From: an uncultured Agathobacter sp.
Lineage (GTDB): Bacteria > Bacillota > Clostridia > Lachnospirales > Lachnospiraceae
Length of the DNA stretch: 64,000 nt
Reading direction: 5' to 3'
Assembly (NCBI GenBank): GCA_934316545.1
Contig: CAKRDT010000008.1
Span: forward strand, 1-64,000
Shown piece after piece: positions 10,278 to 54,958 of this stretch. The position numbers and the translations under genes were made by a program. The notes beneath the pieces are model-generated. The model searched no databases and was not told where the DNA came from. It saw only the letters and a program-made list of their open reading frames with translations. Position 1 is the stretch's first letter; each line of letters begins with the position of its first letter.

Positions 10278-11618
10278 TCATATGAGACGGGTCTTCAAAT
10301 TATGCGCCAGTTCCAGCAGCTTATCCCTCTGATTCAATTCCGGTTCGTCAAGTACACGTTCAAACAATTCATTGAGCAGCAGCCCAATCTCCCTGCCCGG
10401 CTTCATTCCCATCGCGATCAGATCCGATCCGCCGATTGCAAGCATTTTTTTCTCTACACATTGCTGCGCCTCGCAGATTTCTGTAAAAAGGCGTTCATAT
10501 GTATCCACATAGGCCAGTTTTTCCTCTCTGTGATACATACTCTGCCCAAGTGTATCTGCTCTCTTTACCGCAAACAATGCCGGCATATTCTCCACGCCGA
10601 TTCTGTTCATTGCCCGCCGGACCGTGCGTTCGGAAAGTTCCGGCCGGTCATCATGGTAACGGATCAGCCTGCATACGCGATCCGTTGTATCATTGTCAAA
10701 CTTCAGCCGGTGCAAAATCTCCTTTGCCATATCCGCGCCCTTGGCAGGATGCCCCTTAAAATGGTTTTGTCCGGCTTCATCCGTTGTGATACACACCGGC
10801 TTTGCGACATCGTGAAGCAGCATCGTAAGCCGGAGAATCTTGTCCGCCTCCACATGTAACAATGTGTGTAGCGTGTGCTCTCCGACCGAATAACAATGAT
10901 GCTTATTCTGCTGCTCCGTCATCATCATCGCATCAAACTCCGGCATAAAGATACGCGTCAGTCCTGTCTGATAAACCGTCCGCATCTCATCCGGATGCGC
11001 AGACGTCAGAAGTTTCACCAATTCCATCTGAATTCGTTCTGCACTTACCGCACGAAGATTTTCTGCCAGATTGGTGATCGCCGTCAGGGTCTCCGGCTCA
11101 ATTGCAAATCCGAGCTGTGCTGCAAACCGCACTGCACGAAGCATGCGGAGCGCATCCTCTCCGAAACGGTCATGAGGCTTTCCTACGCAGCGGATGATCC
11201 CGGCCGCCAGATCTTTCTCTCCGTCAAAGGCATCCACCAATCCGGTTTCATCATTATAGGCCATAGCATTGATCGTAAAGTCACGTCTTTTTAAGTCTTC
11301 CACCAGATTGCCGGTAAAAATGACTTCCTTCGGGTGGCGACTGTCCTCATATTCCCCGTCGATCCGGTAGGTCGTAACCTCGTATCCTGTATGATCAAGC
11401 ATAACCGTAACCGTTCCATGCTGAATTCCAGTATCAATCGTATGGCAAAACAGAGACTTTACCACCTCCGGGCGCGCCGATGTCGTAATGTCCCAATCCT
11501 GTGGCTTGCGTCCAAGCAGAGTATCCCGCACGCACCCGCCCACAGCATATGCATCATAACCTTCCTTTTGCAGGCGATGAATGATTTGTTTCACATGTTC
11601 CGGTAAATTTATTTTCAT
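10278..11618 (-). CDS. cca: CCA tRNA nucleotidyltransferase
   Basis: Adds or repairs the 3'-terminal CCA of tRNA. The 446-residue protein has the class II nucleotidyltransferase head with YAVGGCVRDTLLGRKPQDWD, where the DxD metal motif is DWD, the RRDFTINAMAYN motif, and the template motif EDALRMLRAVRFAAQLGF. A C-terminal HD domain (LLHDVAKP, about residue 255) follows. The HD-fused form is common in Firmicutes. The ATG overlaps the stop of the upstream GGDEF gene by four bases (ATGA at 11615-11618) and so is translationally coupled to it. There is no obvious separate ribosome site. Confidence 0.95.
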   Translation of the reverse strand: MKINLPEHVKQIIHRLQKEGYDAYAVGGCVRDTLLGRKPQDWDITTSARPEVVKSLFCHTIDTGIQHGTVTVMLDHTGYEVTTYRIDGEYEDSRHPKEVIFTGNLVEDLKRRDFTINAMAYNDETGLVDAFDGEKDLAAGIIRCVGKPHDRFGEDALRMLRAVRFAAQLGFAIEPETLTAITNLAENLRAVSAERIQMELVKLLTSAHPDEMRTVYQTGLTRIFMPEFDAMMMTEQQNKHHCYSVGEHTLHTLLHVEADKILRLTMLLHDVAKPVCITTDEAGQNHFKGHPAKGADMAKEILHRLKFDNDTTDRVCRLIRYHDDRPELSERTVRRAMNRIGVENMPALFAVKRADTLGQSMYHREEKLAYVDTYERLFTEICEAQQCVEKKMLAIGGSDLIAMGMKPGREIGLLLNELFERVLDEPELNQRDKLLELAHNLKTRLI

Positions 11619-14600
11619 AAAAATTTGTAGTGTCCTTTTTCTCCAGTTTTTACAATATATAACAGATCATCTGCCTGTTTGATCAGTTCTCCGACCTCAT
11701 CCTCATTATGCACATCTGCAGCGTAAACAATACCCATGGAGCATGTGATCAGCCTTTCGGCATCCACCGTGATCGGATGTCCGAGATGCTCCTCGATCTG
11801 CTTTCGAAAGCCGGATGTCGCCTGAATCCGCAAGTAGATTTCTTTTGCCATCTGCTCCAATTCCCGGCGATCGTTTGTCTCCAGAATGATAATGAACTCA
11901 TCGCCGCCGTATCGGCTGACAAAGCCTTTTCCGGTCGTCACCTCCCGAAAGATGGCTGCCATCTCTATCAGGATCAGATCTCCGATATCATGTCCGTATG
12001 TATCATTGTAATGTTTAAAATTGTCCAGATCGATAAACATCAGCCCCATATCGAATCCCCTCGGGCTGCCTTTTAACTGTTCTTCCATCTGTGCAATCTG
12101 CCGGTACATACCCGCACGATTGTATACGCCGGTCAGCATATCCGTTTCTGCTGCCGCCTGTAACCGCCGATTCATCTCATAAACTTTCTCATAGGCTTCC
12201 ATTCGGTTGATCGAATATTCCATCTCACGGAACAAAAGACGATAAATATGCAGATCATCCTCGTTAAGCATATAACGTTCGATGGATCCATGCCAATTAT
12301 CCTTCATGCGCACATAAGTGATCAGTAAGCTGGTCAGTGTACCATTCTTCATAAATGGCACCGCAACAAAAGAACACACTTCATCCTCTCCAAAGTAAGC
12401 AATCACATCCTGATGCTCCTGAAATCCATCACCGATTTTGGACACTGCAAAACCCTGCGGATATTCTTTCATTGCGCGCTGAATGCCAATCAGTACCTCT
12501 TTCGTCATGCTGCATCCGCTATCATTATAAAGAACGTTCGGTCTGCCGTCCTGATAATAAATATACAACGCACAATCCAGATTGAAATAATTGATAAAAC
12601 TGCTGACAGCATTCTGCACCATTACCGGAATCTTCTGATCCGTAATATCGATCATTTTCTGCCAGGAGACCATAAAATCCATCTGTCTCTTATTCGTCTG
12701 ATAATCTCTCATCAGCCCCTCCTGCTTAACCAATGCCTCGATATCCGCCTCGCTTGCGCGTTTTCCGACGCTTTCTATATCCGGCGTGATTTCCTTCAAT
12801 AACTCCATCGGAACAGACGCAGCCGTTTCCGCGCACAACACCTCATGTTGTTCCAGCAGTTCCTTTTCACGTTCGCACAACTCCGTTCGCCCCATCTGCC
12901 GGAACAATTCCATTCGTGCCTGACGGAAAATGCGATAGCTGAAAAATTCATTTCCCTCTGCCCTCGCAAGGAATTTCTCTGCATTTGCAAAATAATTGTA
13001 TGCGACTTCAAGATCTCCATCCATTCTCTTTAGCATAGCCTGCGCGAACATATACAGAAACATATCGTCGTCGCATTTTGCATAATCATGAATGATCTCT
13101 TCGTTTTTGTTATTCTTTTCCTTTTCAATAATATAATTCAAGAACTGACGACAGCTCAAAAGATAGCGTTCACATGTAAAACGATCCTTTTGCATAATAC
13201 CGGTCAATGCCAGTAATGCATATAGCTTCGACAAATTACATACACGCAGACTGTTCAAGTGAAGTTTCTCGATCACTTTCATTACCAAAAGCAGATCATG
13301 CTCCGCCTCTTTAAACAACTCCAGCATCACATGATTCAGCGCCCTGTTATAATATACTTCCGCGATATCTTCCGATCTGCCTAATTCATAAAAAGCCTGA
13401 ATCGCATGATCATAATATTGCTCCGCCAATGCATTCTTTCCCATTGCGCTCAGATTATAACCAATTCCGGAGAACATTCTTCCTTCGTAGAAACTTTCTT
13501 CGTTCTTCATGAACTCGTATGTGCGCACCGAATATAACAATGCGATCTCATTCATACCATTTGTCGAAGCAAGCATAATATTCTTTTGGTATGCATCATA
13601 AACAAGCTGCGTATTACCTATCTTCTTGGCCAAAGCAACACCTTTGCCAAAATGAAAGAGCTCAGCTTCCGACCGGTATGCCTTGGCAACAACATTCGGC
13701 TGATTGTCATAGGCATAGACATAAATATGTGCCAGATGATTCTGATAATTGTACTTCATCAGTTTTTCGATCAGTTCCGGCTCAATCGGAATATCCTGCA
13801 CACAGAAAAAGATGTTGTACCATCCGGACATCTGTGCCATCACCTTAAGAAGCTGCGCAAGAAATACCTGTCGGTCATCTTCACTCTCCACCGCTCTCTC
13901 ATATGCACGATCCGCATATTTTCCGGCACGGTCAAGTTTTCCCTGATACATATAGCACACTCCACGAAGGAAATCCAGCTGCGAGCGGTAGAGAAATTCT
14001 TCCTCCATCGGGACAAAACCGGATGCCTCAGCAATCAGTTCCAAAGCCTTCGACAACTCGCCCAGAAGAATGGATGTTCTTGCATATAACAAGTAGAATT
14101 CCCGCCTGCTCGAATCCTTCATTCGCGCATCTTCGAATTTAATCTTATATTCTACTTCGCAGAAATAGCGTTTCGCCTGATCATAGTCAAGGAAGTCCAT
14201 TATGTTGGCAACTTTGCGGATACTTTTCTCATAGTCTTCATCAACGTCCACATTGTCCGCATAGCCTTCGCCCAACGGATGCTCTTTCATCTGTCCCGTT
14301 CTCCGGCTATCTGAGGAGCCTATATGATACAACAGACTTTGATCCTTAATGCTTTCAACAATCTCATCCCACACGTCGACAATCGACTCTTTGCGGCCAA
14401 TAGAATCATTGACACCCAAAACCAATCCGATTCCTGCATCCGGATGAACAATCAGTTCGCGGACAAGCTCCAGTGTACTTCTGCCTGCCATCTGAAAACG
14501 ATTGATCACGATCACAACGGGGTGTTCTTTTGCCAATTCCTTCAGCATCGATGCAATGCCTTCCGTCATGCGGCGCTGCTCATAAGCGACTTCATTGAGC

Positions 14601-14956
14601 AGAACGTTCTCATTACGTGTGCAGATTCCATTCTCATAATAACCTCGCAGGGTTTCTTTGTGTAATTCATACACCCCGCATGCATCCATAAATGCATCGA
14701 AATCTCCCGTACCATATTCCCGAAACATATCACAGATTGTGTCCAGAAACGGGTCATATGCTCCGGTCAATTCCCGATACCCAAACTCACGCGAGGCAAA
14801 AAAAACGCTATCCATCTGCTTCCGATAACGTTTTACAGTCTCTAATTTTTCAATTGAGAAATCATTGTTATAACTAGCCATAACAATGTTCTTCTCGGTT
14901 GTGCCGACATGGTTATAAACCTGCTCGATCACCCCATTATAATACTTATCAATCAT
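11615..14956 (-). CDS. Large diguanylate cyclase: STAND-like ATPase, TPR, GAF and GGDEF domains
   Basis: A 1113-residue predicted soluble protein. Residues 1-230 resemble the ATPase part of MalT/STAND regulators: a Walker-B-like VVIVINRFQMAGRSTLE is seen, but no Walker A, so the domain looks degenerate. Residues about 240-720 are helical and TPR-like. Residues about 750-920 resemble a GAF sensor domain. The C-terminus (about 950-1113) is a GGDEF domain with DLDNFKHYND and an intact RYGGDEF, so c-di-GMP synthesis is likely. The inhibitory RxxD I-site before GGDEF is absent (TGKG). No membrane segment was seen. It is the first gene of an operon with cca. Confidence 0.88.
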   Translation of the reverse strand: MIDKYYNGVIEQVYNHVGTTEKNIVMASYNNDFSIEKLETVKRYRKQMDSVFFASREFGYRELTGAYDPFLDTICDMFREYGTGDFDAFMDACGVYELHKETLRGYYENGICTRNENVLLNEVAYEQRRMTEGIASMLKELAKEHPVVIVINRFQMAGRSTLELVRELIVHPDAGIGLVLGVNDSIGRKESIVDVWDEIVESIKDQSLLYHIGSSDSRRTGQMKEHPLGEGYADNVDVDEDYEKSIRKVANIMDFLDYDQAKRYFCEVEYKIKFEDARMKDSSRREFYLLYARTSILLGELSKALELIAEASGFVPMEEEFLYRSQLDFLRGVCYMYQGKLDRAGKYADRAYERAVESEDDRQVFLAQLLKVMAQMSGWYNIFFCVQDIPIEPELIEKLMKYNYQNHLAHIYVYAYDNQPNVVAKAYRSEAELFHFGKGVALAKKIGNTQLVYDAYQKNIMLASTNGMNEIALLYSVRTYEFMKNEESFYEGRMFSGIGYNLSAMGKNALAEQYYDHAIQAFYELGRSEDIAEVYYNRALNHVMLELFKEAEHDLLLVMKVIEKLHLNSLRVCNLSKLYALLALTGIMQKDRFTCERYLLSCRQFLNYIIEKEKNNKNEEIIHDYAKCDDDMFLYMFAQAMLKRMDGDLEVAYNYFANAEKFLARAEGNEFFSYRIFRQARMELFRQMGRTELCEREKELLEQHEVLCAETAASVPMELLKEITPDIESVGKRASEADIEALVKQEGLMRDYQTNKRQMDFMVSWQKMIDITDQKIPVMVQNAVSSFINYFNLDCALYIYYQDGRPNVLYNDSGCSMTKEVLIGIQRAMKEYPQGFAVSKIGDGFQEHQDVIAYFGEDEVCSFVAVPFMKNGTLTSLLITYVRMKDNWHGSIERYMLNEDDLHIYRLLFREMEYSINRMEAYEKVYEMNRRLQAAAETDMLTGVYNRAGMYRQIAQMEEQLKGSPRGFDMGLMFIDLDNFKHYNDTYGHDIGDLILIEMAAIFREVTTGKGFVSRYGGDEFIIILETNDRRELEQMAKEIYLRIQATSGFRKQIEEHLGHPITVDAERLITCSMGIVYAADVHNEDEVGELIKQADDLLYIVKTGEKGHYKFL

Positions 14957-16733: not shown

Positions 16734-16855
16734 TTATTCATTACTTTACATATGATCTACGAATTGCTCTGTTGCTCCGCAACTCCCGCAATTCTACAAA
16801 CATTCGCATTCCGCTGATTTTCTTCCAAAATCGCTGCATGCTCATGTTTGTTCGG

Positions 16856-16909
16856 GTCACGAAATCACAATCCACTTCCTGCAAGCAGGAGTGTTCTGTG
16901 ATTTGTGAC
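16856..16909. repeat. Nested long inverted repeat after pflB
   Basis: A 54-base structure starts 12 bases beyond the pflB stop. Outer arms GTCACGAAATCACA and TGTGATTTGTGAC pair with one mismatch, and an inner stem TCCTGC / GCAGGA sits at the tip. A smaller hairpin, GTTGC / GCAAC, lies nearby at about 16770-16782. No U run follows, so it is probably an mRNA 3' structure or stabiliser and not a terminator. The remaining bases of the 16635-16920 gap hold the terminator at 16684-16733. Confidence 0.55.
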
Positions 16910-16920
16910 ACCTTAGATCA

Positions 16921-19173
16921 TTACATGCTCTCGTGGCAGGTACGTGCGATTACATCCATCTGCTGCTCCTTGGTCAGATCGATGAACTTAACAGCGTATC
17001 CTGATACACGGATCGTGAAGTTTGCGTACTCTTCCTTCTCCGGATGCTCCATAGCATCGATGAGTTTCTCCTTACCGAATACGTTAACGTTCAGGTGATG
17101 CGCTCCCTGATCGAAGTAACCGTCCATAACGTTTACAAGATTCTCAACACGCTCATCCTCGTTGTTTCCGAGTGCACCCGGGTTGATGGTCTGTGTATTT
17201 GAGATACCGTCAAGTGCCCACTCATATGGGAGCTTTGTCAGAGAGTTGAGAGAAGCAAGAAGTCCGCTCTGCTCTGCTCCGTAGCTTGGGTTAGCTCCCG
17301 GTGAAAGTGGTTCGCCGGCCTTACGTCCGTCAGGCATTGCGCCTGTAGCCTTACCGTATACAACATTTGACGTAATGGTAAGAATGGATGTTGTAGGCTC
17401 GGAATCACGGTATGTGTGATGCTTCTTTAACTTATCCATGAATGTCTTAAGGAGCCATACTCCGATTTCATCGGCACGGTCATCATCGTTTCCATATTTA
17501 GGGAAGTCTCCCTCGATCTCAAAGTCTTTTGCAAGACCGGTCTCATCACGAACAACCTTAACCTTTGCATACTTGATAGCAGAAAGGGAATCGATGACAT
17601 GAGAGAATCCTGCGATACCGGTTGCGAATGTTCTCTTTAAGTCGGTATCCATGAGCGCAAGCTCAGCAGCCTCATAATAATATTTATCATGCATGTACTG
17701 GATCAGGTTTAATGTATTAACATAAATGTCAACTAACCAATCCATCATCTTGTCATACTTAGCCATTACTTCATCGTAGTCTAAGTACTCAGAAGTAATC
17801 GGTGCGTAGTTTGGTCCAACCTGCTCGCCGGACTTCTCATCAACGCCACCGTTGATTGCGTAAAGTAAGCATTTTGCAAGGTTAGCACGAGCGCCGAAGA
17901 ACTGCATCTCCTTACCGGTCTGTGTAGCGGATACACAGCAGCAGATCGCATAATCATCGCCCCATACAGGCTTCATAGCATCATCGTTCTCGTACTGGAT
18001 GGAACTTGTCTCAATTGAAATTCTTGCTGCATAATCCTTGAATGCCTGTGGCAGTCTTGATGAATAGAATACCGTAAGGTTTGGCTCCGGAGCCGGTCCC
18101 ATGTTCTCTAATGTGTGTAAGAAACGGAAGTCCGTCTTCGTTACCATAGAACGTCCGTCCACACCTGTTCCGGCCACATCAAGTGTTGCCCATACCGGAT
18201 CACCGGAGAACAACTGATTATAAGAAGGAATACGGGCAAACTTCACCATACGAAGCTTCATGGTAAAGTGGTCGATCAACTCCTGTGCCTGCTGCTCAGT
18301 CAGGATTCCCTTGTCCATATCTCTCTTGATATAGATATCAAGGAAGGTAGAGACACGTCCAACGGACATTGCTGCACCGTTCTGTGTCTTGATTGCTGCA
18401 AGGTATCCGAAGTATAACCACTGTACGGCTTCCTTTGCGTTTGTCGCAGGTCTTGAGATATCGTATCCGTAGATCTCTGCCAGCTTCTTCATATCCTCTA
18501 AGCACTTGATCTGCTCAGCGATCTCTTCTCTTAAACGGATGACATCATCTGTCATCTGACCGCATCCACAGTTTGCTTTGTCTTTCTTCTTCTCCTCGAT
18601 GAGGTAATCAAGACCATAGAGCGCAACACGACGGTAATCACCAACGATACGTCCGCGTCCGTATGTATCCGGAAGACCTGTTAAGATTTTCGCGTGACGA
18701 ACCTTCATCATCTCAGGTGTGTAGGCATCAAATACTGCTGTATTATGCGTCTTATGATACTTTGTGAAGATCTCCTTTAAGTCGGAGCTTACTTCGTATC
18801 CGTAAGTCTCACATGCCTGTACAGCCATCTTGATTCCACCGTAAGGCATGAATGCACGTTTCAGTGGCTTGTCCGTCTGTAAACCAACGATCTGCTCTAA
18901 ATCCTTTAAAGACTCATCAATATATCCCGGACCATAAGCTGTAATACTTGTTACAACCTCTGTTTCCATATCAAGAACGCCGCCTTTTGCGCGCTCCTCT
19001 TTCTGTAGCTTCTGTAATGCGCCCCAAAGCTTATCCGTTGCTTCAGTCGGGTCTGCGAGAAAGTCCTCGTTTCCGTCATATGGGGTGTAGTTGTCCTGAA
19101 TGAACTGGCGAACGTTGATTTCTTCTTTCCAAAGACGTCCTTCGAATCCATCCCATTCCTTCATTTCTAACAT
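16921..19173 (-). CDS. pflB: Formate C-acetyltransferase (pyruvate formate-lyase)
   Basis: Glycyl-radical enzyme that cleaves pyruvate with CoA to acetyl-CoA and formate in anaerobic fermentation. The 750-residue product has the active-site cysteine pair in [11 protein letters not shown] near the middle and the C-terminal glycyl-radical motif RVSGYAVKF, in which Gly carries the radical. Its activase pflA is downstream. The ATG at 19173 is used because GGAGG lies seven bases before it; the frame extends further without a ribosome site. A ZTP riboswitch and promoter lie directly upstream. Formate feeds one-carbon folate chemistry, which explains ZTP control. Length is normal for PflB. Confidence 0.97.
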
Positions 19174-19303
19174 GATGTTCCTCCTTATATAAAATGATTT
19201 CTTGTTGCCATACATTAGTTTTATCTAACCATTGATAGGCTATCCTAACGTATGTAATTTGTCAAGTCTTGGGGGATATGTTTTCGATTTGATACAATCA
19301 GAT

Positions 19304-19475
19304 AAAAAAAGACCCTCCAGGCTTCTTTTGTTGCCCAGACGGTCGGCCATTGCGGTGCCTGCGAAGCAGGTATCGCTTGCGATGTCCCGAAGAGACATTG
19401 CTTCTATCGGCAGCCAATACACTGCCTGTTATACTCCACGTGGTTCTCCACTCATTCCGTCAGTCATATAACGAC
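19304..19475 (-). promoter_or_regulatory. ZTP (pfl-motif) riboswitch of pflB with overlapping terminator
   Basis: Read on the minus strand, a 5' subdomain has the P1 arms GTTAT (19472-19468) and ATAAC (19432-19428), the ATGACTGACGG segment and the hairpin GTGGAGAACCAC followed by GTGGAG. After a variable linker with two hairpins comes the conserved 3' segment CCGACCGTCTGGGC (19346-19333). These match the pfl/ZTP consensus. The same GACCGTCTGGGC is the 5' arm of a terminator whose 3' arm is GCCTGGAGGGTC (19322-19311), followed by seven U (19310-19304). Binding of ZTP or ZMP, which build up when 10-formyl-THF is short, should block the terminator and raise pflB expression. The small reading frame over this element is not a gene. 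Confidence 0.93.
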
Positions 19476-19478
19476 TGT

Positions 19479-26108: not shown

Positions 26109-27290
26109 TTAAAGATACTTCTTTAATGCCTCGGCCTTGTCAATTGCTTCCCACGGAAGATCCAGATCCGTGCGTCCGAAATGTCCATACGCTGCTGTGC
26201 CGCGATAGATCGGTCTGCGCAGATCAAGCATCTTGATGATTCCGGCCGGACGCAGATCAAAGTTTTCTCTTACAATCTCAACAAGCCTGTCATCGGCGAT
26301 CTTTCCGGTTCCGAATGTATCAACCATAACCGATGTAGGTTCTGCCACACCGATTGCATAAGACAACTGGATCTCACATTTCTCCGCAAGTCCTGCTGCT
26401 ACAATGTTCTTTGCAACATAGCGGGCAGCGTATGCTGCAGAACGATCAACCTTGGTGCAATCCTTTCCGGAAAAAGCGCCACCGCCGTGGCGGGCATATC
26501 CACCGTAGGTATCTACAATAATCTTACGTCCTGTCAGACCTGCGTCCCCGTGCGGTCCACCGATCACAAAACGTCCGGTAGGATTGATAAAGAACTTTGT
26601 ATGCTCATCGATCATATCCTGCGGAAGAACCGGATCGAATACATATTTTTTGATATCCGCATGAATCTGTTCCTGAGTGACATCCTCATCATGCTGCGTA
26701 GATAATACAACCGCTTCAAGTCTCTTTGGTTTTCCTGCTTCATCATACTCTACGGAAACCTGTGTCTTTCCGTCCGGACGAAGGTAGGTTAAAGTTCCGT
26801 CCTTGCGAACCTTTGTCAACTGTAAAGCAAGCTTATGTGCAAGAGAGATTGGGTAAGGCATTAACTCCGGTGTCTCATTGGTTGCGTAACCAAACATCAT
26901 ACCCTGATCGCCGGCTCCGGTATCAAGCTCATCGGTCAGCTCACCTTCCTTAGCCTCCAGCGCCTTATCAACCCCCATAGCGATATCGCTTGACTGCTGA
27001 TCCAATGCTACCATAACTGCACATGTATGACCGTCAAAGCCGGTTCTGGCATCATTGTATCCGATCTCGTTAACCGTCTTTCTTACGATTGAAGGAATAT
27101 CAAGCTGAGCCTTTGTTGTAATCTCACCTGTTACAAGCACGAATCCTGTACAGCTGGCTGCCTCGCACGCAACACGGCTCATCGGATCCTGTTCCATACA
27201 GGCATCAAGGATGGCATCTGAAATCGCATCACACATTTTGTCAGGATGTCCTTCGGTTACGGACTCTGATGTAAATAATAATTTTTCCAT
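26109..27290 (-). CDS. metK: S-adenosylmethionine synthetase
   Basis: Makes SAM from methionine and ATP. The 393-residue product starts [26 protein letters not shown] (the ATP-binding GHPDK is present). It has the [13 protein letters not shown] hexapeptide-type motif and the later [23 protein letters not shown] motif. ATG at 27290 has AGGAG eight bases upstream and matches known N-termini; 27 further in-frame residues upstream belong to the leader. Transcription is probably controlled by the SAM-I riboswitch immediately upstream, giving feedback by the product. Confidence 0.97.
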
Positions 27291-27325
27291 CGATTTCTCC
27301 TTTCGTTTAAAACGCATTGTACAAT

Positions 27326-27480
27326 AAAAAAATCCGCATGTAAGCGGACTGACTGAATTTAAGATCATCAAATCCTCTTATTGTTCGATTACTCGCTCAG
27401 GTTGGCACCTTCCTGTTGTACAAAACGGGGTTGCCGTGACTTCACAGATCCTATGTATCTCCATCACTCTGAATAAGAGA
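27326..27480 (-). promoter_or_regulatory. SAM-I (S-box) riboswitch of metK
   Basis: On the minus strand the aptamer runs from 27480 to 27374. P1 arms TCTCTTATT and AATAAGAGG pair. The S-box core is present: AGAGTGATGGAGA, GATCTGTGAAGTCACGGCAACC and AGGAAGGTGCCAACCTGAGC. A terminator hairpin AGTCCGC / GCGGATT (27350-27331) with U residues (27332-27326) follows at about 25 bases. Bound SAM should permit the terminator and lower metK. A TTTAAT -10-like element (27497-27492) lies just upstream. Confidence 0.95.
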
Positions 27481-47855: not shown

Positions 47856-48731
47856 TCATTTCAGTGGAAACTTTTTCGGATATTTCACACATTGACTAAT
47901 CGACTTATGTATAACGCCTTCACTTGTAGCTTTCTCAAACTTCGTTTGTCCATACGCTCCCTTACTAACATAATACGACAATACACCATCTTTTAGTTTT
48001 AATGAAACATTCAAATTCTGTCCATCTGCTACATAATTTACAAAAACCATTCCATTTGCACGATAGTATATATTTCCTACTTTACCTTGCTTCTTTATCT
48101 GCTTAAGAATTTTAGCACCATTTTTCGCTTTCTTCAACTGTGCTTGTGTAATTTTCAATCCACCATATTCAACTAATTTCTTTCCATCCCATTTGGAATA
48201 ATATTTATTCCAGGTATGTCCTGTCCCATCTACGAGTGCATCAAATTGGCTATCTATAACTTCAAATTGGTTTTTTCCTAAATAGGTAATCCCTTCTCCA
48301 ATATTTTTTACTTCATTTGCCTGATTACCATTAAAGGTATATGCATACGTAAGCCATCCGCTGCCGCCGGCACCCGCATGAAATGTAACCATTCTTGTTT
48401 TCTTCAATTTATATACATTAAATGAGTCAGGATACAATTCCCAGCCTTCACATGCCACGATCTTTTTACATGCTGCCGACGTCACATACCATACTTTTGC
48501 ATCTGTATATCCGAAATCTCCTTCACTCTTTGCGGTAATTGCGATAGCCTCTTTCTTACCATCTCCATTCATATCCGCATATACAAATTCACGAATCGTT
48601 TCCGAAGTATTTTCTTTCAGCTTATTTCTAAGTGTATTCTCGGTTGCAGCTTTCGTATAAGTAGGACAGATAAATAATATTGTAATCAACATTATAAGCA
48701 TGATAACGATACTCTTACATTTTCTTTTCAT
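47856..48731 (-). CDS. Secreted protein with EF-hand-like loop, unknown function
   Basis: A 291-residue secreted protein: a signal peptide at about 1-29 (KSIVIMLIMLITILFICPTY, then TKAA), then a region with YADMNGDGKKEAIAITA, a DxNGDG calcium-binding (FG-GAP/dockerin-like) loop near 52-61. The C-terminal part is Lys/Tyr-rich with no named domain. It is the third gene of a probable operon with the 49400 and 49867 genes (24 and 5 bases apart) and shares the DxDGD loop with the gene at 48756. The region is AT-rich compared with the core. Confidence 0.65.
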   Translation of the reverse strand: MKRKCKSIVIMLIMLITILFICPTYTKAATENTLRNKLKENTSETIREFVYADMNGDGKKEAIAITAKSEGDFGYTDAKVWYVTSAACKKIVACEGWELYPDSFNVYKLKKTRMVTFHAGAGGSGWLTYAYTFNGNQANEVKNIGEGITYLGKNQFEVIDSQFDALVDGTGHTWNKYYSKWDGKKLVEYGGLKITQAQLKKAKNGAKILKQIKKQGKVGNIYYRANGMVFVNYVADGQNLNVSLKLKDGVLSYYVSKGAYGQTKFEKATSEGVIHKSISQCVKYPKKFPLK

Positions 48732-48755
48732 TTATGCTATCTCCTTTGCCCCAAA

Positions 48756-49400
48756 TTATCTGATCAACTGATCTCTTTCCGTTTGATTATTTGTTCTCCA
48801 CGCGTCATCTTGTGCTTTACATTTCTTTATTAAAGAATTGTACTTCTTTTGCGATATCTTTTTTCCATTTTTCTTACAAACGATTTTATTCGTTATAAAT
48901 GACTCTTGATAATCCAGATATTTTGAAAGTTTTCCCTTTCTATTTAACTTGTATGCAGTATCATCTTCTTCTAATAAACTATAGAAGAAATGATTGTGCA
49001 AATGATTTTGGGAGCATAAATAGACATATGCATAACCTCCCACTTGATTCGCGCAACTAACTCCATTTTTAGATACCGGAACAACTTTATTCTTTTTATA
49101 TGTATATACATATATTTGACTTGAGTTATACTCATTTGGATGCAATGTTATAAGCTCTGGGACTTTATCTCCATCCATATCTTTTACCATAAATAGAGAG
49201 CAAAATTTATAGTTTTCCGTATTCTGCATCTCCCAATCGCCCTCTCTAACCGTAAACGATGATTCATACTTTTCTAAAAATTTCTGATACGCCTCCAATG
49301 CCTTTTCTCTTTTTGTCTTTGCAGACACATTGCATGGCAAAGATGTCAGCAGTAATGTAACAACCAAAACAAAAATAATACTGAAATATCTTTTCTTCAT
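48756..49400 (-). CDS. Secreted protein with DxDGD loop, unknown function
   Basis: A 214-residue secreted protein: signal peptide at about 1-28 (SIIFVLVVTLLLTSLPC, then NVSA), then a helical segment and a VKDMDGDKVPELITLH loop resembling a calcium-binding DxDGDG motif, although its last Gly is Lys. The C-terminal half is Lys/Asn-rich. The protein at 47856 carries a similar loop (MNGDGKKEA), which suggests two members of one family. Five bases separate it from the zinc-ribbon gene upstream. Function unknown. Confidence 0.6.
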   Translation of the reverse strand: MKKRYFSIIFVLVVTLLLTSLPCNVSAKTKREKALEAYQKFLEKYESSFTVREGDWEMQNTENYKFCSLFMVKDMDGDKVPELITLHPNEYNSSQIYVYTYKKNKVVPVSKNGVSCANQVGGYAYVYLCSQNHLHNHFFYSLLEEDDTAYKLNRKGKLSKYLDYQESFITNKIVCKKNGKKISQKKYNSLIKKCKAQDDAWRTNNQTERDQLIR

Positions 49401-49405
49401 GAAAA

Positions 49406-49867
49406 TTACTCCTTATTCATCTTTCCATTTATCTCACTTAACAAGGTAATTATATGCCCCACACCATTCGTAATCAAGCCAATTGCTGCGCCATTCAAAA
49501 AATATTCCAAAAATATTATAGAAGAAAAATCACTGTATGTATTTCTCCCGTGATCATATGCAACCAATATACTTGAGAAGATTATAATATCCCCCATAAT
49601 CTGCAATATCTTACCTACGACAAGACTATCCGTTAAAAATACTGCAAGCGAAGTATTTGATTCTGTTGTATGAACTTCTTCTTGCATTATTTGTTCCCCT
49701 GCAATTGCCTTTTCAACATATTCCTGTTGTTCTATAGGTGACAATTTTTCAAAAAACATATCCGTATATTCTGTTACAATCAGTGTTTCGCCACAATTTC
49801 CGCAAAATTCTCCGCTTCCAACAGTCCACTTTTTACACTGTGGACAAATTTTAATCTTCTTTACCAT
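49406..49867 (-). CDS. Zinc-ribbon membrane protein, unknown function
   Basis: A 153-residue protein with an N-terminal zinc ribbon, CPQCKKWTVGSGEFCGNC (CxxC-x10-CxxC), and two hydrophobic stretches at about 85-105 and 118-145. The N-terminus is likely cytoplasmic. It starts the operon that includes two secreted proteins (48756 and 47856). Such small zinc-ribbon membrane proteins often accompany secretion or signal functions, but no specific role can be assigned. Confidence 0.55.
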   Translation of the reverse strand: MVKKIKICPQCKKWTVGSGEFCGNCGETLIVTEYTDMFFEKLSPIEQQEYVEKAIAGEQIMQEEVHTTESNTSLAVFLTDSLVVGKILQIMGDIIIFSSILVAYDHGRNTYSDFSSIIFLEYFLNGAAIGLITNGVGHIITLLSEINGKMNKE

Positions 49868-49989
49868 GTCGGTTCCTCTCTCCTCATTTCATATTCTTGG
49901 TATATTATATTTTTTCTGTAACATACTTCTATTTTACTCTCATAAAATTTTCGGCACTCCAACTATTTTCTTTTCATTTTACAAACTCC

Positions 49990-50859
49990 TTATTCTTCAT
50001 ATTTCCTTGAAAAATCATCGGCTCGCGAGGATAATTTTTCTATGTATAATTGGTAATAATAATCATCATATTCTTCATGATATGGATGTGCATAACACGC
50101 CTCACACAATTTCTTCCATCCATATGGAGCCACTGTTAACTCACCCGAAAAGGTCATATCTGAATTCTCATATTCTCCATTTGTATCTTTTATTATAGCT
50201 CCTTCCTCATCGTAGACACACTCATATACCATCTCGCCTTCATCTTCCTTATTTTCCCGATATTCTATTCTTTCTATCTTTCCGTCCGCATTATATTCAT
50301 ATGAATAAAAACCAGGACTCCCCGCCGGACAATCTTCACTTATGTATTTCTCGCTAATTCTATCTTCGTTGTCATACTCATATGTTATCTCTTAAATTCG
50401 ACCGGTCAAATATTTCTCTGTCCACTCATACCATATCCGTATCGGATTTTCATCTTCATACTCAAAGTTTTTTCGTATGTACGATATATAATTTCCACCA
50501 GCATCACAATTATAGTTTGCATCTTCACTGATAATATGATCTACATCATCATATTTATAATTTACAACATTATGCTCTTCACCGTCCTTTGTCGTTTTAA
50601 TGCAAATACAATTACCTGTTTTATCATATTTAAATTCATGCTTTAATTCTGCTAGTTTACTTCCATCCTCACCGTACTGCATCTCCTTTATCCATTTCCC
50701 ATTAGGATCGTATTGATACTCAATACGATTTCCCGTTTTCGAATCAACAAAAACTGTACAGATCTTTATGGTAGTGTATTTATCTGATTTAGATTCAGTT
50801 TGCGCACCGCAACCACATAGCATTAAGTTTGCAAGTATTAGCACCAATACAATTTTCAT
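49990..50859 (-). pseudogene. YD-repeat lipoprotein split by an in-frame stop
   Basis: Two frames, 50859-50392 and 50391-49990, are in the same register and separated by one TAA codon (50394-50392). Together they would be about 289 residues. The first part has a lipobox (LANLMLCGCG) and both parts have YD-type repeats: YQYDPNGK, FKYDKTGN, YKYDDVDH, YEYDNEDR and YEYNADGK. No frameshift is needed to join them. The second part has no own start with a ribosome site near the break; its first ATG is at 50232. A true nonsense mutation, a suppressed stop and a sequencing error are possible. Confidence 0.8.
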
Positions 50860-50907: not shown

Positions 50908-50940
50908 GCCGTCAAAATATACCAAGCATATTTTGACGGC
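50908..50940. repeat. Perfect 13-base inverted repeat downstream of the CHAP gene
   Basis: GCCGTCAAAATAT (50908-50920) and its exact complement ATATTTTGACGGC (50928-50940) with a 7-base loop, located between the CHAP gene stop and the YD lipoprotein. No U run follows on the minus strand, so the terminator function is uncertain. Confidence 0.75.
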
Positions 50941-50956: not shown

Positions 50957-52477
50957 TTAATAGGACGGTATCGCATATCCATATACATAAGATGAATCAA
51001 CCCGCCTTCTAGTATTTCTTGTAAACTTCTGAACGGTATAATTTCCATTCCCAGCCCTTACATTGCCTTCTACGACCTGTAAATACCCGTTTACTGGTGC
51101 AGCAATAATCATACCCACGTGAGAAGAACCGTTTGAACCATAAAACACCAGATCGCCAGCTTTTGGCGTATAATTGCCTCCATGCGAAGCTGAAAGTTGG
51201 AACTGGTCTCTCTGTCGATACCAGCTTACAGCCGATGCACAACTTGCAGTCTTTGGAATTGCACTGTCCAGCACTCCAATCTGATTTGCACAATATGACT
51301 GAAATGCCATACACCATGCCTTTCCACTTCCAGATACAGTCCTTCCATAATACCAGGTGTTGTACACGACATTGTTATTACCACGATAATCTCCAACTCC
51401 AAGCTGTGACAACTCATAATTTACAATCTGTTGAATTTTAACAGATGAATTTGATGATTCTGAATCAGAATTCTGGTTATATTCTTGTCCATTTACAGAC
51501 ACCCCTACAAGTACGAATTTCTGGGCAATGGTATTATTTCCTTCATATACCTGCATATGTGTTTGGTTTTTAAAAACAGCTCCTCCAACATCTAGGTACA
51601 GCCCATTGCACTTGGAAATAAAACTATAAAAATTATCTGATGTTTTAACAATTTCCCATTTCTGATTATCTCCATTATGTGCTGTCCACTGCAGAACTTT
51701 TGTTTCGTTATTCTTTCCGCTGTTTGCTACATCAAGATTCTTTCCACTATGAATTGCAGTAATAGTATAATATCCATCACCACAGTTCTTGATCAAAAAT
51801 CCCTGATTTGTTTGATAAGCATTCTGATAGATCTGAATTGTTGCACCATCTTCTGTACTTGCTCCACGAACATCTAACACCATATTTTGATCTGCCGCAC
51901 ACTTAATCTGATAATATCCATTCTTAATATTAGCATTTTCTACGTTATCTGATTGTGTACTATATTTTCCAGATACCCACCCCATTTTATATCCGCCACT
52001 TACTGGATAGATAACCTGTGTTTTATTCCCAGAATAGCCTACAACTATAACTTGATCATTTGCATAAACAGTTCCAAGCGTTTGTGACAAGTTACTACGG
52101 CGATAAGCCGTCTTTGAGGTTCCAAGCTGTGTTTTTTGTGTAGAAAAATCTGTATTTACAAAAAATGCACTGTTTTTGGCATATGCAGTCCGAAATCTCC
52201 CCCCTGAAACTGGATACTTCACACGCACATACCCATCTGATTTAACTTCAAGAATTGTACAGCAATCTGTTGCACCATCAATATAACCTGTGTATGTATA
52301 TCTTCCATTACTCAAGTTATATGTATTGGTACGTCCTGTCGGTATTGTGTAACATATAATTGGAACACACCCCGTTGTTGTTGCCGCTTGTACCTGCATT
52401 TTTTCCATTGGTAAAAATGTAACTATCATTGCCATTACAAGCAATGCCATTACAACCTTTTTGAAATAATTTCTCAT
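50957..52477 (-). CDS. Secreted CHAP-domain cell-wall hydrolase with ricin-type lectin domain
   Basis: A 506-residue secreted protein. The signal peptide is at about 1-31 (LLVMAMIVTFLPMEKMQVQA). Residues about 50-185 look like SH3-like repeats (VKYPVSGGRFRTAYAK, YPVSGGYKMGWVSGKY). Residues about 188-330 are a ricin-B/RICIN-type fold (QxW-like DNQKWEI, KNLDVANSG). The C-terminus (about 360-506) is a CHAP amidase with the catalytic Cys in KAWCMAFQSYC and the His in SSHVGMII, followed by VVEGN. It probably cuts peptidoglycan. It lies 33 bases after the RCC1-like gene and should share the c-di-GMP riboswitch transcript. ATG 52477 follows AAAAAGGAGGA. Confidence 0.9.
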   Translation of the reverse strand: MRNYFKKVVMALLVMAMIVTFLPMEKMQVQAATTTGCVPIICYTIPTGRTNTYNLSNGRYTYTGYIDGATDCCTILEVKSDGYVRVKYPVSGGRFRTAYAKNSAFFVNTDFSTQKTQLGTSKTAYRRSNLSQTLGTVYANDQVIVVGYSGNKTQVIYPVSGGYKMGWVSGKYSTQSDNVENANIKNGYYQIKCAADQNMVLDVRGASTEDGATIQIYQNAYQTNQGFLIKNCGDGYYTITAIHSGKNLDVANSGKNNETKVLQWTAHNGDNQKWEIVKTSDNFYSFISKCNGLYLDVGGAVFKNQTHMQVYEGNNTIAQKFVLVGVSVNGQEYNQNSDSESSNSSVKIQQIVNYELSQLGVGDYRGNNNVVYNTWYYGRTVSGSGKAWCMAFQSYCANQIGVLDSAIPKTASCASAVSWYRQRDQFQLSASHGGNYTPKAGDLVFYGSNGSSHVGMIIAAPVNGYLQVVEGNVRAGNGNYTVQKFTRNTRRRVDSSYVYGYAIPSY

Positions 52478-52510
52478 AGACTTTTCCTCCTTTTTGCATT
52501 TCAGATTTGT

Positions 52511-53647
52511 TTAGTTACTATAAAATTCTTCTGCCGCAATAATTACGCTTGGCTCGTTTCCAAATCCATTCCCCCATCCCCACACATTATTATCATAATC
52601 AATTGCGACAATCCTTCCATATCGAAAAAACATCTCCTTAAAACAGTAATCTCTTATCTCCCATGATGTTTTCCATAAATCCTCGTATGTTCCATCGCCT
52701 AATTGACCATACTTATTTTCTCCACGAGTATAAATTGTTCCATTTTTAAACAAATAATATTCATTATATTTCCCCCACTTTACATAATTTTTTATATTCT
52801 TTCCGCCTTGATTAATAAGCTCCAAATTTTTTTGATCTAATTTGTATAGTTCACCAGAATCAATACCAATAAAATAACTTTCAGAATATCCCAAACCTTC
52901 AATCAAAAGTTCACTACACGGAATTTTCTTCAAATCATACACCTCCTGAAAGCTCTTTTCGCATATATTACTATCTTCGTACAAAAATTTAACATCTTTT
53001 TTCTGACTATATACATATAATTCCCCATCTAGTAATATTGTTTTATCACTAGTTACACGAATATCTTTTTTATTATCAAAGTCCAACGGTATAAAATATT
53101 CATAAAAATTGTCCACTATCATTTCAACATATTGTTGTCCATCTTCACAAGTAACAATCATTTTCTCAAACGGCTCTACATTGGGAGATATGTTAATATC
53201 CATTACATCAGAAAATCCATCTACTACCTCTGGTACAAAAATATTTTTTCCCCAATGATACAATTTTCCATCTTGTGTAAGTGCATAAAACCGATATTCA
53301 TCTTGATATATTTTTACTGCATCATAAATACCTTCAACTTGAGTCCAATCATCACTGTCAATTCTTTGTCCGTTTCCTAATTGCCCCTCATCATTAACTC
53401 CATACCCCCAAATCGTACCATCTGACTTTAAATATAAGATATTATCATCTGTAACAATAACATCACCACTAAATGAAATAACACGATCCGATTCTGTTAT
53501 TTCATCTTCAGATTCTTCCTCTTCATAATCATCCGCCCAATTCTCAGTCTCATCTTCCATAGTATTCTCAGTCATTCCACTATTCCCGCAACTTGCTAAG
53601 CACATTGCCAGGCTCATTGCCCAAAACATTGTAAACACTTTTTTCAT
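52511..53647 (-). CDS. RCC1-like beta-propeller lipoprotein
   Basis: A 378-residue predicted lipoprotein: MKKVFTMFWAMSLAMCLASC with the lipobox near Cys 20. An acidic linker (about 25-50) precedes repeats that resemble RCC1 blades: IWGYGVNDEGQLGNGQ, YHWGKN, YTRGENKYGQLGDGTYED and VWGWGNGFGNE. It is probably a surface-exposed beta-propeller. The ATG at 53647 gives the signal peptide; an ATG four codons upstream lies nearer to AAGGG and is possible. A c-di-GMP-I riboswitch lies 100 bases upstream, and the CHAP gene follows. Confidence 0.82.
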   Translation of the reverse strand: MKKVFTMFWAMSLAMCLASCGNSGMTENTMEDETENWADDYEEEESEDEITESDRVISFSGDVIVTDDNILYLKSDGTIWGYGVNDEGQLGNGQRIDSDDWTQVEGIYDAVKIYQDEYRFYALTQDGKLYHWGKNIFVPEVVDGFSDVMDINISPNVEPFEKMIVTCEDGQQYVEMIVDNFYEYFIPLDFDNKKDIRVTSDKTILLDGELYVYSQKKDVKFLYEDSNICEKSFQEVYDLKKIPCSELLIEGLGYSESYFIGIDSGELYKLDQKNLELINQGGKNIKNYVKWGKYNEYYLFKNGTIYTRGENKYGQLGDGTYEDLWKTSWEIRDYCFKEMFFRYGRIVAIDYDNNVWGWGNGFGNEPSVIIAAEEFYSN

Positions 53648-53746
53648 AATTCTTATCATTCCCTTCTTTCGATCAAAACACACAAAATTTCTCGAACCAA
53701 AATTTTTTATTACCCCACTATTTATTCTTATTTAATTACTTCTTTA

Positions 53747-53880
53747 GAAAAGAAAAGACATTACAACTGATTTACATTCAGTGTAATGCCTTACTTCATG
53801 CACATTAGTTGGTAACTGGCTATCATTTTACAGACCCTATAGCTTTGCGTCGCAGCCTTTCAACTGCTTTGCTTTTTTCA
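53747..53880 (-). promoter_or_regulatory. Cyclic-di-GMP-I (GEMM-I) riboswitch with terminator
   Basis: On the minus strand the aptamer (about 53880-53795) has GCAAAGC (53872-53866), the tetraloop stem CAGTTGAAAGGCTG, then CGACGCAAAGC, TATAGGGTCTG and GATAGCCAGTTACC. This order and spacing match the GEMM-I consensus (P2 stem with GAAA, ACGCAAAGC, tetraloop receptor, and the P3 arms GCTAT / ATAGC). A hairpin CATTACACTGA / TCAGTTGTAATG (53788-53759) with a U-rich tail follows, consistent with transcription termination. It controls the RCC1-like gene and probably the CHAP gene. It begins 26 bases after the previous gene's stop, so that gene is not the target. Whether ligand turns it on or off cannot be told from sequence. 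Confidence 0.93.
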
Positions 53881-53905
53881 ATTTATATATATCTATATCA
53901 TTTTT

Positions 53906-54958
53906 CTACGGCCATACTGTATATACGTTTCCGTAGTCGCTATAATATGTTTTTCCGTTACACTTCTTATAGCGTTTTACTCTTAAGTAATATTGTTTAT
54001 TTTTATTTAATCCCTTTAATTTTACTGTTGTTCCTTTGATGGTCTTGGACTTTGTGCTTTTCTTGCCAAATTTGTCGGATGTTGAATATTGCAATATATA
54101 TCCTGTTGCCTCATCGGATTTTTCCAAACGAACCGTTGCCTTTGTTTTCGTTCTTGTTACGGACTCAATGCCTCCAGCTTCCGGCTTAACACTCATTACA
54201 AAATGATATGATCCATGATTACCACAAACTTTTATGTAATATCTTCCCTTGTCCAAGTCAACATATCGTTTGCTATATGCATATCCTTTATTATTGTCGT
54301 AATAAGATTCAAAATAACCAATGTTGTTTCCTTCACTGTTTAATATCTCATACCTTGCATAACTACTCTCAATATAATTAGTATGAGAAATCACAAGTTT
54401 TCCTGAAAATGGCATATCAAAAATGTAAAAATCTTGCGCATCTTCATTTCCAATCATTCCATACACTTTTTGACCTAATGAAATCTTCTTGGCTTGTGAT
54501 AAAATGTCATTTCGATCACTCTGTGATTCTGGGAATGTCTCTTTTTCCTTTTGACTACTCAATCTAAAAGAATATGTTGCGTTTTCGCTGGCATTTAACT
54601 TAATGTAATGGCTTCCCGAACATAAATATAAATTCACCTTTTTGTATGCCGCATTTCTGTTTTCATCATGACCAACATACCAAGAATCTATTTCTTCATA
54701 TTCATTATCATACAGTGTAATATAAGCGCTGTATGTCTGATAAGCCTCCAATGTCAATGTGACAACTTCAGCCTGCTTGATATCCAAGCGATAATAAGCT
54801 TCGCCCTCTGGTGCGGATCCACTGTAAGTTCCGTTCTCGCTGATCAGCATTGCATTTTGGATTGTATTATCCGTAGATGCCTGCGTAGTCACCGGATAGC
54901 ATCCACTCAATCCCACAACAATTGCCAAAAATAAGATTATTTTATTCTTTAGTTTCAT
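53906..54958 (-). CDS. Lipoprotein with PPC-like and fibronectin type III domains
   Basis: A 350-residue predicted lipoprotein: KNKIILFLAIVVGLSGC, lipobox Cys near 20. Two beta-rich PPC/pre-peptidase-like domains lie at about 45-135 and 155-255 (AYYRLDIKQAEVVTLTLEA, AQDFYIFDMPFSGKLVISH). A C-terminal fibronectin type III-like domain lies at about 260-350 (ATVRLEKSDEATGYILQYS, YYLRVKRYKKCNGKTYYS). It is probably surface-exposed. An upstream 30-base element (55011-55040) matches one upstream of the HTH regulator gene at 55102-56574, which suggests control by that regulator. The terminator for the regulator lies in between. Confidence 0.8.
   Translation of the reverse strand: MKLKNKIILFLAIVVGLSGCYPVTTQASTDNTIQNAMLISENGTYSGSAPEGEAYYRLDIKQAEVVTLTLEAYQTYSAYITLYDNEYEEIDSWYVGHDENRNAAYKKVNLYLCSGSHYIKLNASENATYSFRLSSQKEKETFPESQSDRNDILSQAKKISLGQKVYGMIGNEDAQDFYIFDMPFSGKLVISHTNYIESSYARYEILNSEGNNIGYFESYYDNNKGYAYSKRYVDLDKGRYYIKVCGNHGSYHFVMSVKPEAGGIESVTRTKTKATVRLEKSDEATGYILQYSTSDKFGKKSTKSKTIKGTTVKLKGLNKNKQYYLRVKRYKKCNGKTYYSDYGNVYTVWP

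What the first reader, a model, noticed from the sequence alone, without database searches (positions are those of the whole stretch)
50957..53880. A c-di-GMP-I riboswitch controls a surface RCC1-like lipoprotein and a secreted CHAP/ricin wall hydrolase
Seen: a GEMM-I aptamer and terminator on the minus strand at 53880-53747, then two secreted genes with only 33 bases between them. Established: GEMM-I riboswitches bind c-di-GMP and often control surface proteins. Inference: a c-di-GMP-gated cell-wall hydrolase plus an RCC1-like surface protein, a pairing I do not know from the literature.
Basis: partly seen in the sequence, partly recalled or inferred. Interest (0 to 1): 0.75.

Follow-up and report, generated by a model that had tools for sequence, protein, structure and literature searches.

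The report
Riboswitch before surface-protein and wall-hydrolase genes
A bacterium, probably of a gut family, carries a well-known kind of RNA switch, probably read by the signal molecule c-di-GMP, in front of a surface lipoprotein gene and a secreted wall-cutting enzyme gene; the switch is ordinary except for one changed base in its ligand pocket.

Summary
Observation confirmed: an RF01051 aptamer at 53883-53808 (-), 63.5 bits against a cut-off of 35, a strong terminator hairpin, then two exported genes 33 bases apart. One is an RCC1-repeat lipoprotein (start more likely 53647). The other is a ricin/CHAP protein with invariant Cys, His, Glu and Asn, whose relatives carry other wall-hydrolase domains instead of CHAP. 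New here: (1) the ligand-selectivity base (Vc2 G20, here 53873) is A, as in cGAMP-type GEMM-Ib aptamers, so c-di-GMP should not be taken for granted. Yet the window encodes a GGDEF protein with the canonical Asp, a PilZ and an HD-GYP-like protein; 38 of 38 further GGDEF domains read (of 144 listed) have that Asp, and SMODS cyclases are in 0 of 31 A20-pattern genomes. c-di-GMP remains the better guess. (2) The aptamer starts 22 bases after an fn3-like gene, so it may be an attenuator inside an operon. ON or OFF is open: layout favours OFF, but antiterminator pairing is no better than chance. The gene pair was not seen in 83 other fetched loci, most with short flanks. Known kind, modest interest.

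The parts
53808..53883 (-). c-di-GMP-I / GEMM-I aptamer; pocket bases by alignment: A at 53873 (Vc2 G20 position), A at 53846 (A47), C at 53812 (C92); GAAA tetraloop on P2; short P3b
   Evidence: cmscan RF01051 63.5 bits, E 4.4e-10. Vc2 numbering partly recalled; agrees with PMC9262584 passages (G11 of Cd1 equivalent to G20 of Vc2).
53746..53792 (-). intrinsic terminator: stem 53790-53779 with 53769-53757 (extended to 53792), U-rich tail 53756-53746
   Evidence: sequence; hairpin dG -15.5, 19 nt after the ligand-pairing C
53760..53816 (-). candidate antiterminator: GUUACCAACU (53816-53807, holds the ligand-pairing C) with AGUUGUAAU (53768-53760), 9 pairs and one bulge
   Evidence: energy -5.5, reached by 31 percent of shuffles, so not supported statistically
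52511..53647 (-). RCC1-repeat lipoprotein, 378 aa, lipobox LASC (by eye)
   Evidence: Pfam PF13540, PF00415; homologues P0001-P0005
50957..52477 (-). secreted protein with ricin-lectin and CHAP domains, 506 aa (signal peptide and SH3-like N-terminal part by eye); C389, H453, E470, N472 invariant in 11 aligned sequences
   Evidence: Pfam PF14200, PF05257; alignment A2; relatives with PF01551, PF00877, PF00246 or PF01183 in place of CHAP
53906..54958 (-). fn3-like, exported-looking protein gene directly upstream; possible first gene of the operon
   Evidence: PF00041 E 7.3e-5, 23.3 bits, below its cut-off of 25; its homologue stands two genes before an SH3-like/ricin gene in L001
54988..55015 (-). 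promoter-like site (TTGAAA-16-TAAAAT, TG) before the fn3-like gene; the only minus-strand match listed between 55200 and the aptamer
   Evidence: such matches are no commoner than in shuffles (17 found, mean 24.0)
50908..50940 (-). long hairpin after the CHAP gene, without a U-tract
   Evidence: sequence, by eye

Best explanation
A GEMM-I riboswitch with an A at the Vc2-20 position works as a transcription attenuator in front of (and perhaps inside an operon with the fn3-like gene before) an RCC1-repeat lipoprotein gene and a secreted CHAP peptidoglycan hydrolase gene. Shown by sequence: aptamer, terminator, gene order, protein domains. Inferred: the ligand in the cell is c-di-GMP; binding holds the aptamer's 3' strand, lets the terminator form and lowers expression of both genes (OFF), so that hydrolase and lipoprotein are made when c-di-GMP is low, as with PPEP-1 in C. 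difficile; the two genes share a transcript; the CHAP protein cuts peptidoglycan.
For: RF01051 match. Terminator hairpin dG -15.5 placed 19 nt past the ligand-pairing C and not overlapping it; 5 of 46 rows overlap it (L033, L038 twice, L067, L093), the layout of the ON switch pilM. The same 64 kb encodes a GGDEF protein with canonical Asp and GGDEF motif, a PilZ protein and an HD_5 (HD-GYP-like) protein. 11 of 12 C. [quoted passage not shown] In Cd1, changing the G20-equivalent to A did not abolish c-di-GMP binding (PMC9262584, passages). PG hydrolase: interchangeable hydrolase domains on the same N-terminal module.
Against: Minimum-energy folds show no strong antiterminator at any transcript length tried, and the candidate pairings are reached by 29 to 31 percent of shuffles; in the 16 loci, 6 of 32 tests, in 5 loci, were under 0.05, the window's not among them. 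A at position 20 is the cGAMP-type base. No genome of this organism is held, so its other cyclases are unknown. No shared transcript was measured. No homologous locus with the same riboswitch could be fetched, so conservation of the arrangement is untested.
Confidence: 0.52

Rival explanations
1. Same riboswitch, opposite sign: c-di-GMP binding prevents the terminator (ON), so lipoprotein and hydrolase are made in the sessile, high c-di-GMP state.
For: The terminator is in the minimum-energy fold of every truncation from 53758 on; one of 12 C. difficile type I switches was induced by c-di-GMP (PMC3649979, passages); the cGAMP-type pilM switch is ON (PMC9262584, passages).
Against: In pilM and in L033, L038, L067 and L093 the terminator takes in the ligand-pairing strand; here it lies 19 nt downstream.
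Confidence: 0.22
2. The aptamer senses 3',3'-cGAMP, or both cGAMP and c-di-GMP, because of A at position 20.
For: A at 53873. A G20A change lets a c-di-GMP-I aptamer bind cGAMP (PMC7288161 and PMC11352751, table passages). The A20 pattern occurs in 34 of 397 genomes of the family sample, against 2 of 397 for the reversed pattern by my reading of the table; 31 of the 34 also have an RF01051 match. In 4 loci (L029/L066, L080, L088, L089) A20 and G20 aptamers stand in tandem.
Against: All 39 distinct GGDEF domains read, 38 from 10 A20-pattern genomes (of 144 listed) plus the window's, have Asp where cGAMP-making Hypr enzymes have Ser (Ser348 from PMC6456294, passages). SMODS (PF18144) is in 0 of 31 A20-pattern genomes (31 of the 34 were given) and in 2 of 30 RF01051 genomes without the pattern. 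The introduction of PMC9262584 places cGAMP switches in several Gram-negative bacteria.
Confidence: 0.12
3. Not exclusive of the above: the pair is a secreted lytic effector with its immunity lipoprotein, used against neighbouring cells, rather than an autolysin with a surface protein.
For: Two SH3-like/ricin genes in G001 are also preceded by small exported-looking proteins of other kinds (L205 and L203, by eye); RCC1-lipoprotein homologues stand without the CHAP or fn3-like gene in G386 and G356; catalytic domains are swapped on a fixed N-terminal module.
Against: Only three loci; no toxicity or protection evidence; an autolysin family could also swap domains.
Confidence: 0.15
4. A weakened aptamer that no longer switches; the terminator simply lowers expression.
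For: A20; no supported antiterminator.
Against: 63.5 bits over the whole model with the tetraloop intact; A20 recurs in strong RF01051 hits of other genomes: 18 of the 38 pattern matches fall in places listed.
Confidence: 0.1

Closest known systems
C. difficile Cdi1_12 type I riboswitch before CD2830 (PPEP-1/Zmp1)
   Same: GEMM-I aptamer with a terminator before a secreted enzyme acting at the cell surface; OFF with c-di-GMP (PMC3649979, PMC7865049, passages)
   Different: metalloprotease that cuts adhesins, not a peptidoglycan hydrolase; pocket base there not checked here
C. difficile Cdi1_4 / Cdi1_5 at a prophage lysis module
   Same: GEMM-I aptamers linked to host-lysis genes (PMC3649979, passages)
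   Different: prophage genes; relatives of the two proteins here were not found in IMG/VR by pattern scan
Geobacter GEMM-Ib (cGAMP) riboswitches
   Same: A at the Vc2-20 position (recalled; for A14 and selectivity); control of surface proteins, including an operon of lipoprotein transpeptidases (PMC6456294, passages)
   Different: no Hypr-type Ser in the 38 GGDEF domains read from A20-pattern relatives; other bacterial family
Corynebacterium glutamicum c-di-AMP riboswitch controlling a cell-wall peptidase
   Same: a cyclic-dinucleotide riboswitch controlling a cell-wall-related peptidase (PMC9960051, title and start of abstract only)
   Different: another ligand and another riboswitch class
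Other GEMM-I loci of the same family sample (L011-L093)
   Same: aptamer often followed by a terminator hairpin and by exported-looking proteins (by eye) or GGDEF/EAL proteins; among 59 downstream proteins CAP 6, GGDEF 4, transglutaminase 3, EAL 3
   Different: neither this RCC1 lipoprotein nor this CHAP type found in the DNA fetched

Membership tests
c-di-GMP-I riboswitch class (RF01051) | covariance match over the gathering score | tested here: met
   63.5 against 35 bits, whole model
c-di-GMP-I riboswitch class (RF01051) | G at the Vc2-20 ligand-contact position | tested here: not met
   A at 53873 in the alignment; described as a selectivity factor rather than a hard filter (PMC9262584, passages)
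c-di-GMP-I riboswitch class (RF01051) | binds c-di-GMP and changes expression | not testable with these tools
   needs in-line probing and transcription assays
GEMM-Ib (cGAMP) subclass | A at position 20 with C at 92 (definition recalled) | tested here: met
   A at 53873, C at 53812
GEMM-Ib (cGAMP) subclass | cGAMP-making enzyme (Hypr GGDEF with Ser, or CD-NTase) in the genome | tested here: inconclusive
   own genome not held; window's GGDEF has Asp; 0 Ser among 38 domains read of 144 listed in 10 relatives; SMODS in 0 of 31
OFF-type transcriptional riboswitch | antiterminator using the ligand-pairing strand | tested here: inconclusive
   9-pair candidate, reached by 31 percent of shuffles
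CHAP peptidoglycan hydrolase | CHAP domain with Cys-His-Glu/Asn (catalytic assignment recalled) | tested here: met
   PF05257 41.4 bits against 26; C389, H453, E470, N472 invariant in 11
CHAP peptidoglycan hydrolase | cleaves peptidoglycan | not testable with these tools
   needs an enzyme assay
bacterial lipoprotein | signal peptide with lipobox | tested here: met
   MKKVFTMFWAMSLAMCLASC, read by eye; no signal-peptide program was run

The most novel reading that the evidence does not exclude
The A20 GEMM-I aptamers of this Gram-positive family, this one among them, form a cGAMP-sensing or dual-ligand subclass, with A20/G20 tandems reading two cyclic dinucleotides, and here couple it to a secreted wall hydrolase and its partner lipoprotein.
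Probability: 0.1. Interest if true: 0.65.

Novelty: new member of a known kind. Interest (0 to 1): 0.3.

Why it matters
If the switch works as proposed, this bacterium ties wall cutting at its surface to its motile/sessile signal. More generally, about one in twelve sampled genomes of the family (34 of 397; 31 of these with an RF01051 match) matches a pattern for GEMM-I aptamers with the cGAMP-type pocket base, while no cGAMP-type enzyme was seen among the domains read. Calling these c-di-GMP switches by Rfam name alone is untested, and a simple binding assay would settle it.

Tried and rejected
Phage origin of the pair: IMG/VR pattern scans with both proteins found no relatives. Own-genome search: none held. 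Orthologous loci with the riboswitch: the best relative, L001/G001, has an fn3-like gene, a different lipoprotein and an SH3-like/ricin gene, and no RF01051 match. The RCC1 homologues in G386 and G356 have no RF01051 match nearby at E up to 5 (the G356 contig ends close by). Polarity from folding: not decisive. For some searches I picked 16 loci by hand. Dropped rows: for A3 I left out loci whose first frame was masked, missing, a repeat of one gene, or a probable chance pattern match, leaving 59 proteins. The Pfam tally shows only 25 of 72 families, so the absence of CHAP and RCC1 was tested with my own models of these two types on 84 sources, window included; some of these overlap or are chance pattern matches, most have about 1.5 kb of flank, and other hydrolase types were not tested there. 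In one search, 7 of 46 sources gave no readable motif and L165 repeats L103. In one search three of the 34 pattern genomes were not given. Primary cGAMP-riboswitch papers were not held.

Full report
What is there. The minus strand of 55015-50900 holds, in order: an fn3-like gene (54958-53906), a GEMM-I aptamer (53883-53808), a terminator (53792-53746), an RCC1-repeat lipoprotein gene (53647-52511) and, 33 bases on, a ricin/CHAP protein gene (52477-50957). The aptamer match is far over threshold (63.5 against 35 bits, E 4.4e-10). The window fits the family Lachnospiraceae: its rpoA and ribosomal-protein stretch matches 17 of 18 genomes given, mostly from the family sample centred on G003, at 67-83 percent DNA identity, and G003 comes from a record titled Lachnospiraceae (L004). 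This is not a formal placement. No whole genome of the organism is held.

The proteins. The hydrolase has PF14200 and PF05257 domains over their cut-offs. Among 11 aligned sequences C389, H453, E470 and N472 do not vary. In the homologue list the same N-terminal and ricin part is joined to PF01551 (M23), PF00877 (NlpC/P60), PF00246 (M14) or PF01183 (GH25) in place of CHAP (family nicknames recalled), which fits a wall hydrolase with exchangeable blades. The PDB sequence search matched only the lectin part (14 sequences at E up to 0.01, all within residues 183-324). The RCC1 protein has a lipobox (by eye) and close homologues (P0001-P0004). In a 397-genome family sample, with at most 4 candidates scored per genome, only G386 and G356 show long matches in the list; neither has a GEMM-I aptamer in the DNA fetched. 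G001 has an fn3-like gene, another lipoprotein and an SH3-like/ricin gene side by side, with no RF01051 match in the genome, so the gene neighbourhood does not depend on the riboswitch.

The pocket base. In the alignment, model position 11 is A, not G. By numbering worked out partly from memory, and consistent with PMC9262584 (G11 of Cd1 equivalent to G20 of Vc2, passages), this is the base that guides selectivity between cyclic dinucleotides. A pattern for A20 aptamers matched 34 of 397 genomes (38 matches; reversed control 2 of 397 by my reading). RF01051 is found in 135 of 397, among them 31 of those 34; 18 of the 38 pattern matches fall in RF01051 places listed, so some of the rest may be chance. 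Four loci hold A20 and G20 aptamers in tandem. Tests for cGAMP makers were negative as far as they went: 39 distinct GGDEF domains (38 from 10 A20-pattern genomes, of 144 listed, plus the window's own) have Asp where Hypr enzymes have Ser (Ser348 from PMC6456294, passages), and SMODS is in 0 of 31 A20-pattern genomes against 2 of 30 RF01051 genomes without the pattern. The window itself encodes GGDEF, PilZ and HD_5 proteins. The changed Cd1 aptamer G11A keeps c-di-GMP binding, though with less preformed structure (PMC9262584, passages). I therefore keep c-di-GMP as clearly the likelier ligand.

Sign of control. The terminator hairpin starts 19 nt after the ligand-pairing C. In one search, 41 of 46 rows have the hairpin downstream of that C and 5 have it overlapping (L033, L038 twice, L067, L093); a few of the called hairpins are too weak to be real. 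By the Cd1 and pilM schemes (PMC9262584, passages) the separated layout favours OFF, and 11 of 12 C. difficile type I switches showed negative control (PMC3649979, passages). But the folds show no strong antiterminator, and the window's candidate pairings are reached by about 30 percent of shuffles. Of 32 such tests in 16 loci, 6 in 5 loci were under 0.05, little above chance. I give OFF about two to one over ON.

Operon. The aptamer begins 22 bases after the fn3-like stop codon. The only minus-strand promoter-like site listed between 55200 and the aptamer is before the fn3-like gene, though such sites are no commoner than chance. The switch may therefore cut the distal two genes out of a longer transcript; this is inference.

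Novelty. Class, topology and kind of target are known. Searches of the held library for c-di-GMP riboswitches with Lachnospiraceae, cell wall hydrolase and RCC1 listed no paper whose title or abstract start reports this pairing. Of the 14 papers listed I read passages of two (PMC3649979, PMC7865049); the rest, the two RCC1 papers and the single Lachnospiraceae paper were seen in listings only, and the library lacks most subscription journals. The pairing is not seen in 83 other fetched loci, with the limits given under Tried and rejected. I rate it a new member of a known kind.

Noticed in passing
L080, L088, L089, L029/L066: Tandem GEMM-I aptamers that mix A20 and G20 pocket bases before one gene.
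   Followed up: partly
window 52511-53647: P0001 matches the window's RCC1 protein almost exactly after about residue 50, but its first 60 or so residues are those of P0002, so the gene looks mosaic (by eye).
   Followed up: no
window 11615-14956: 1113-aa protein with a weak AAA_16 match, a TPR match below its cut-off and a C-terminal GGDEF domain: a possible signal-dependent diguanylate cyclase.
   Followed up: partly
window 16753-16920: Clostridiales-1 RNA (118.2 bits) directly downstream of a gene that looks like pyruvate formate-lyase (16921-19215; name by eye).
   Followed up: no
window 19326-19477: ZMP/ZTP riboswitch match just over threshold (40.1 against 39) with a long insert, before the same gene.
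   Followed up: no
window 27375-27479: SAM riboswitch before a gene that looks like metK (26109-27371, name by eye); ordinary.
   Followed up: no
window 47856-50859: Run of small, partly exported-looking proteins with few or no Pfam matches after the hydrolase gene.
   Followed up: no
L033, L038, L067, L093: GEMM-I aptamers whose ligand-pairing strand lies in the called terminator stem, the layout expected of ON switches.
   Followed up: no
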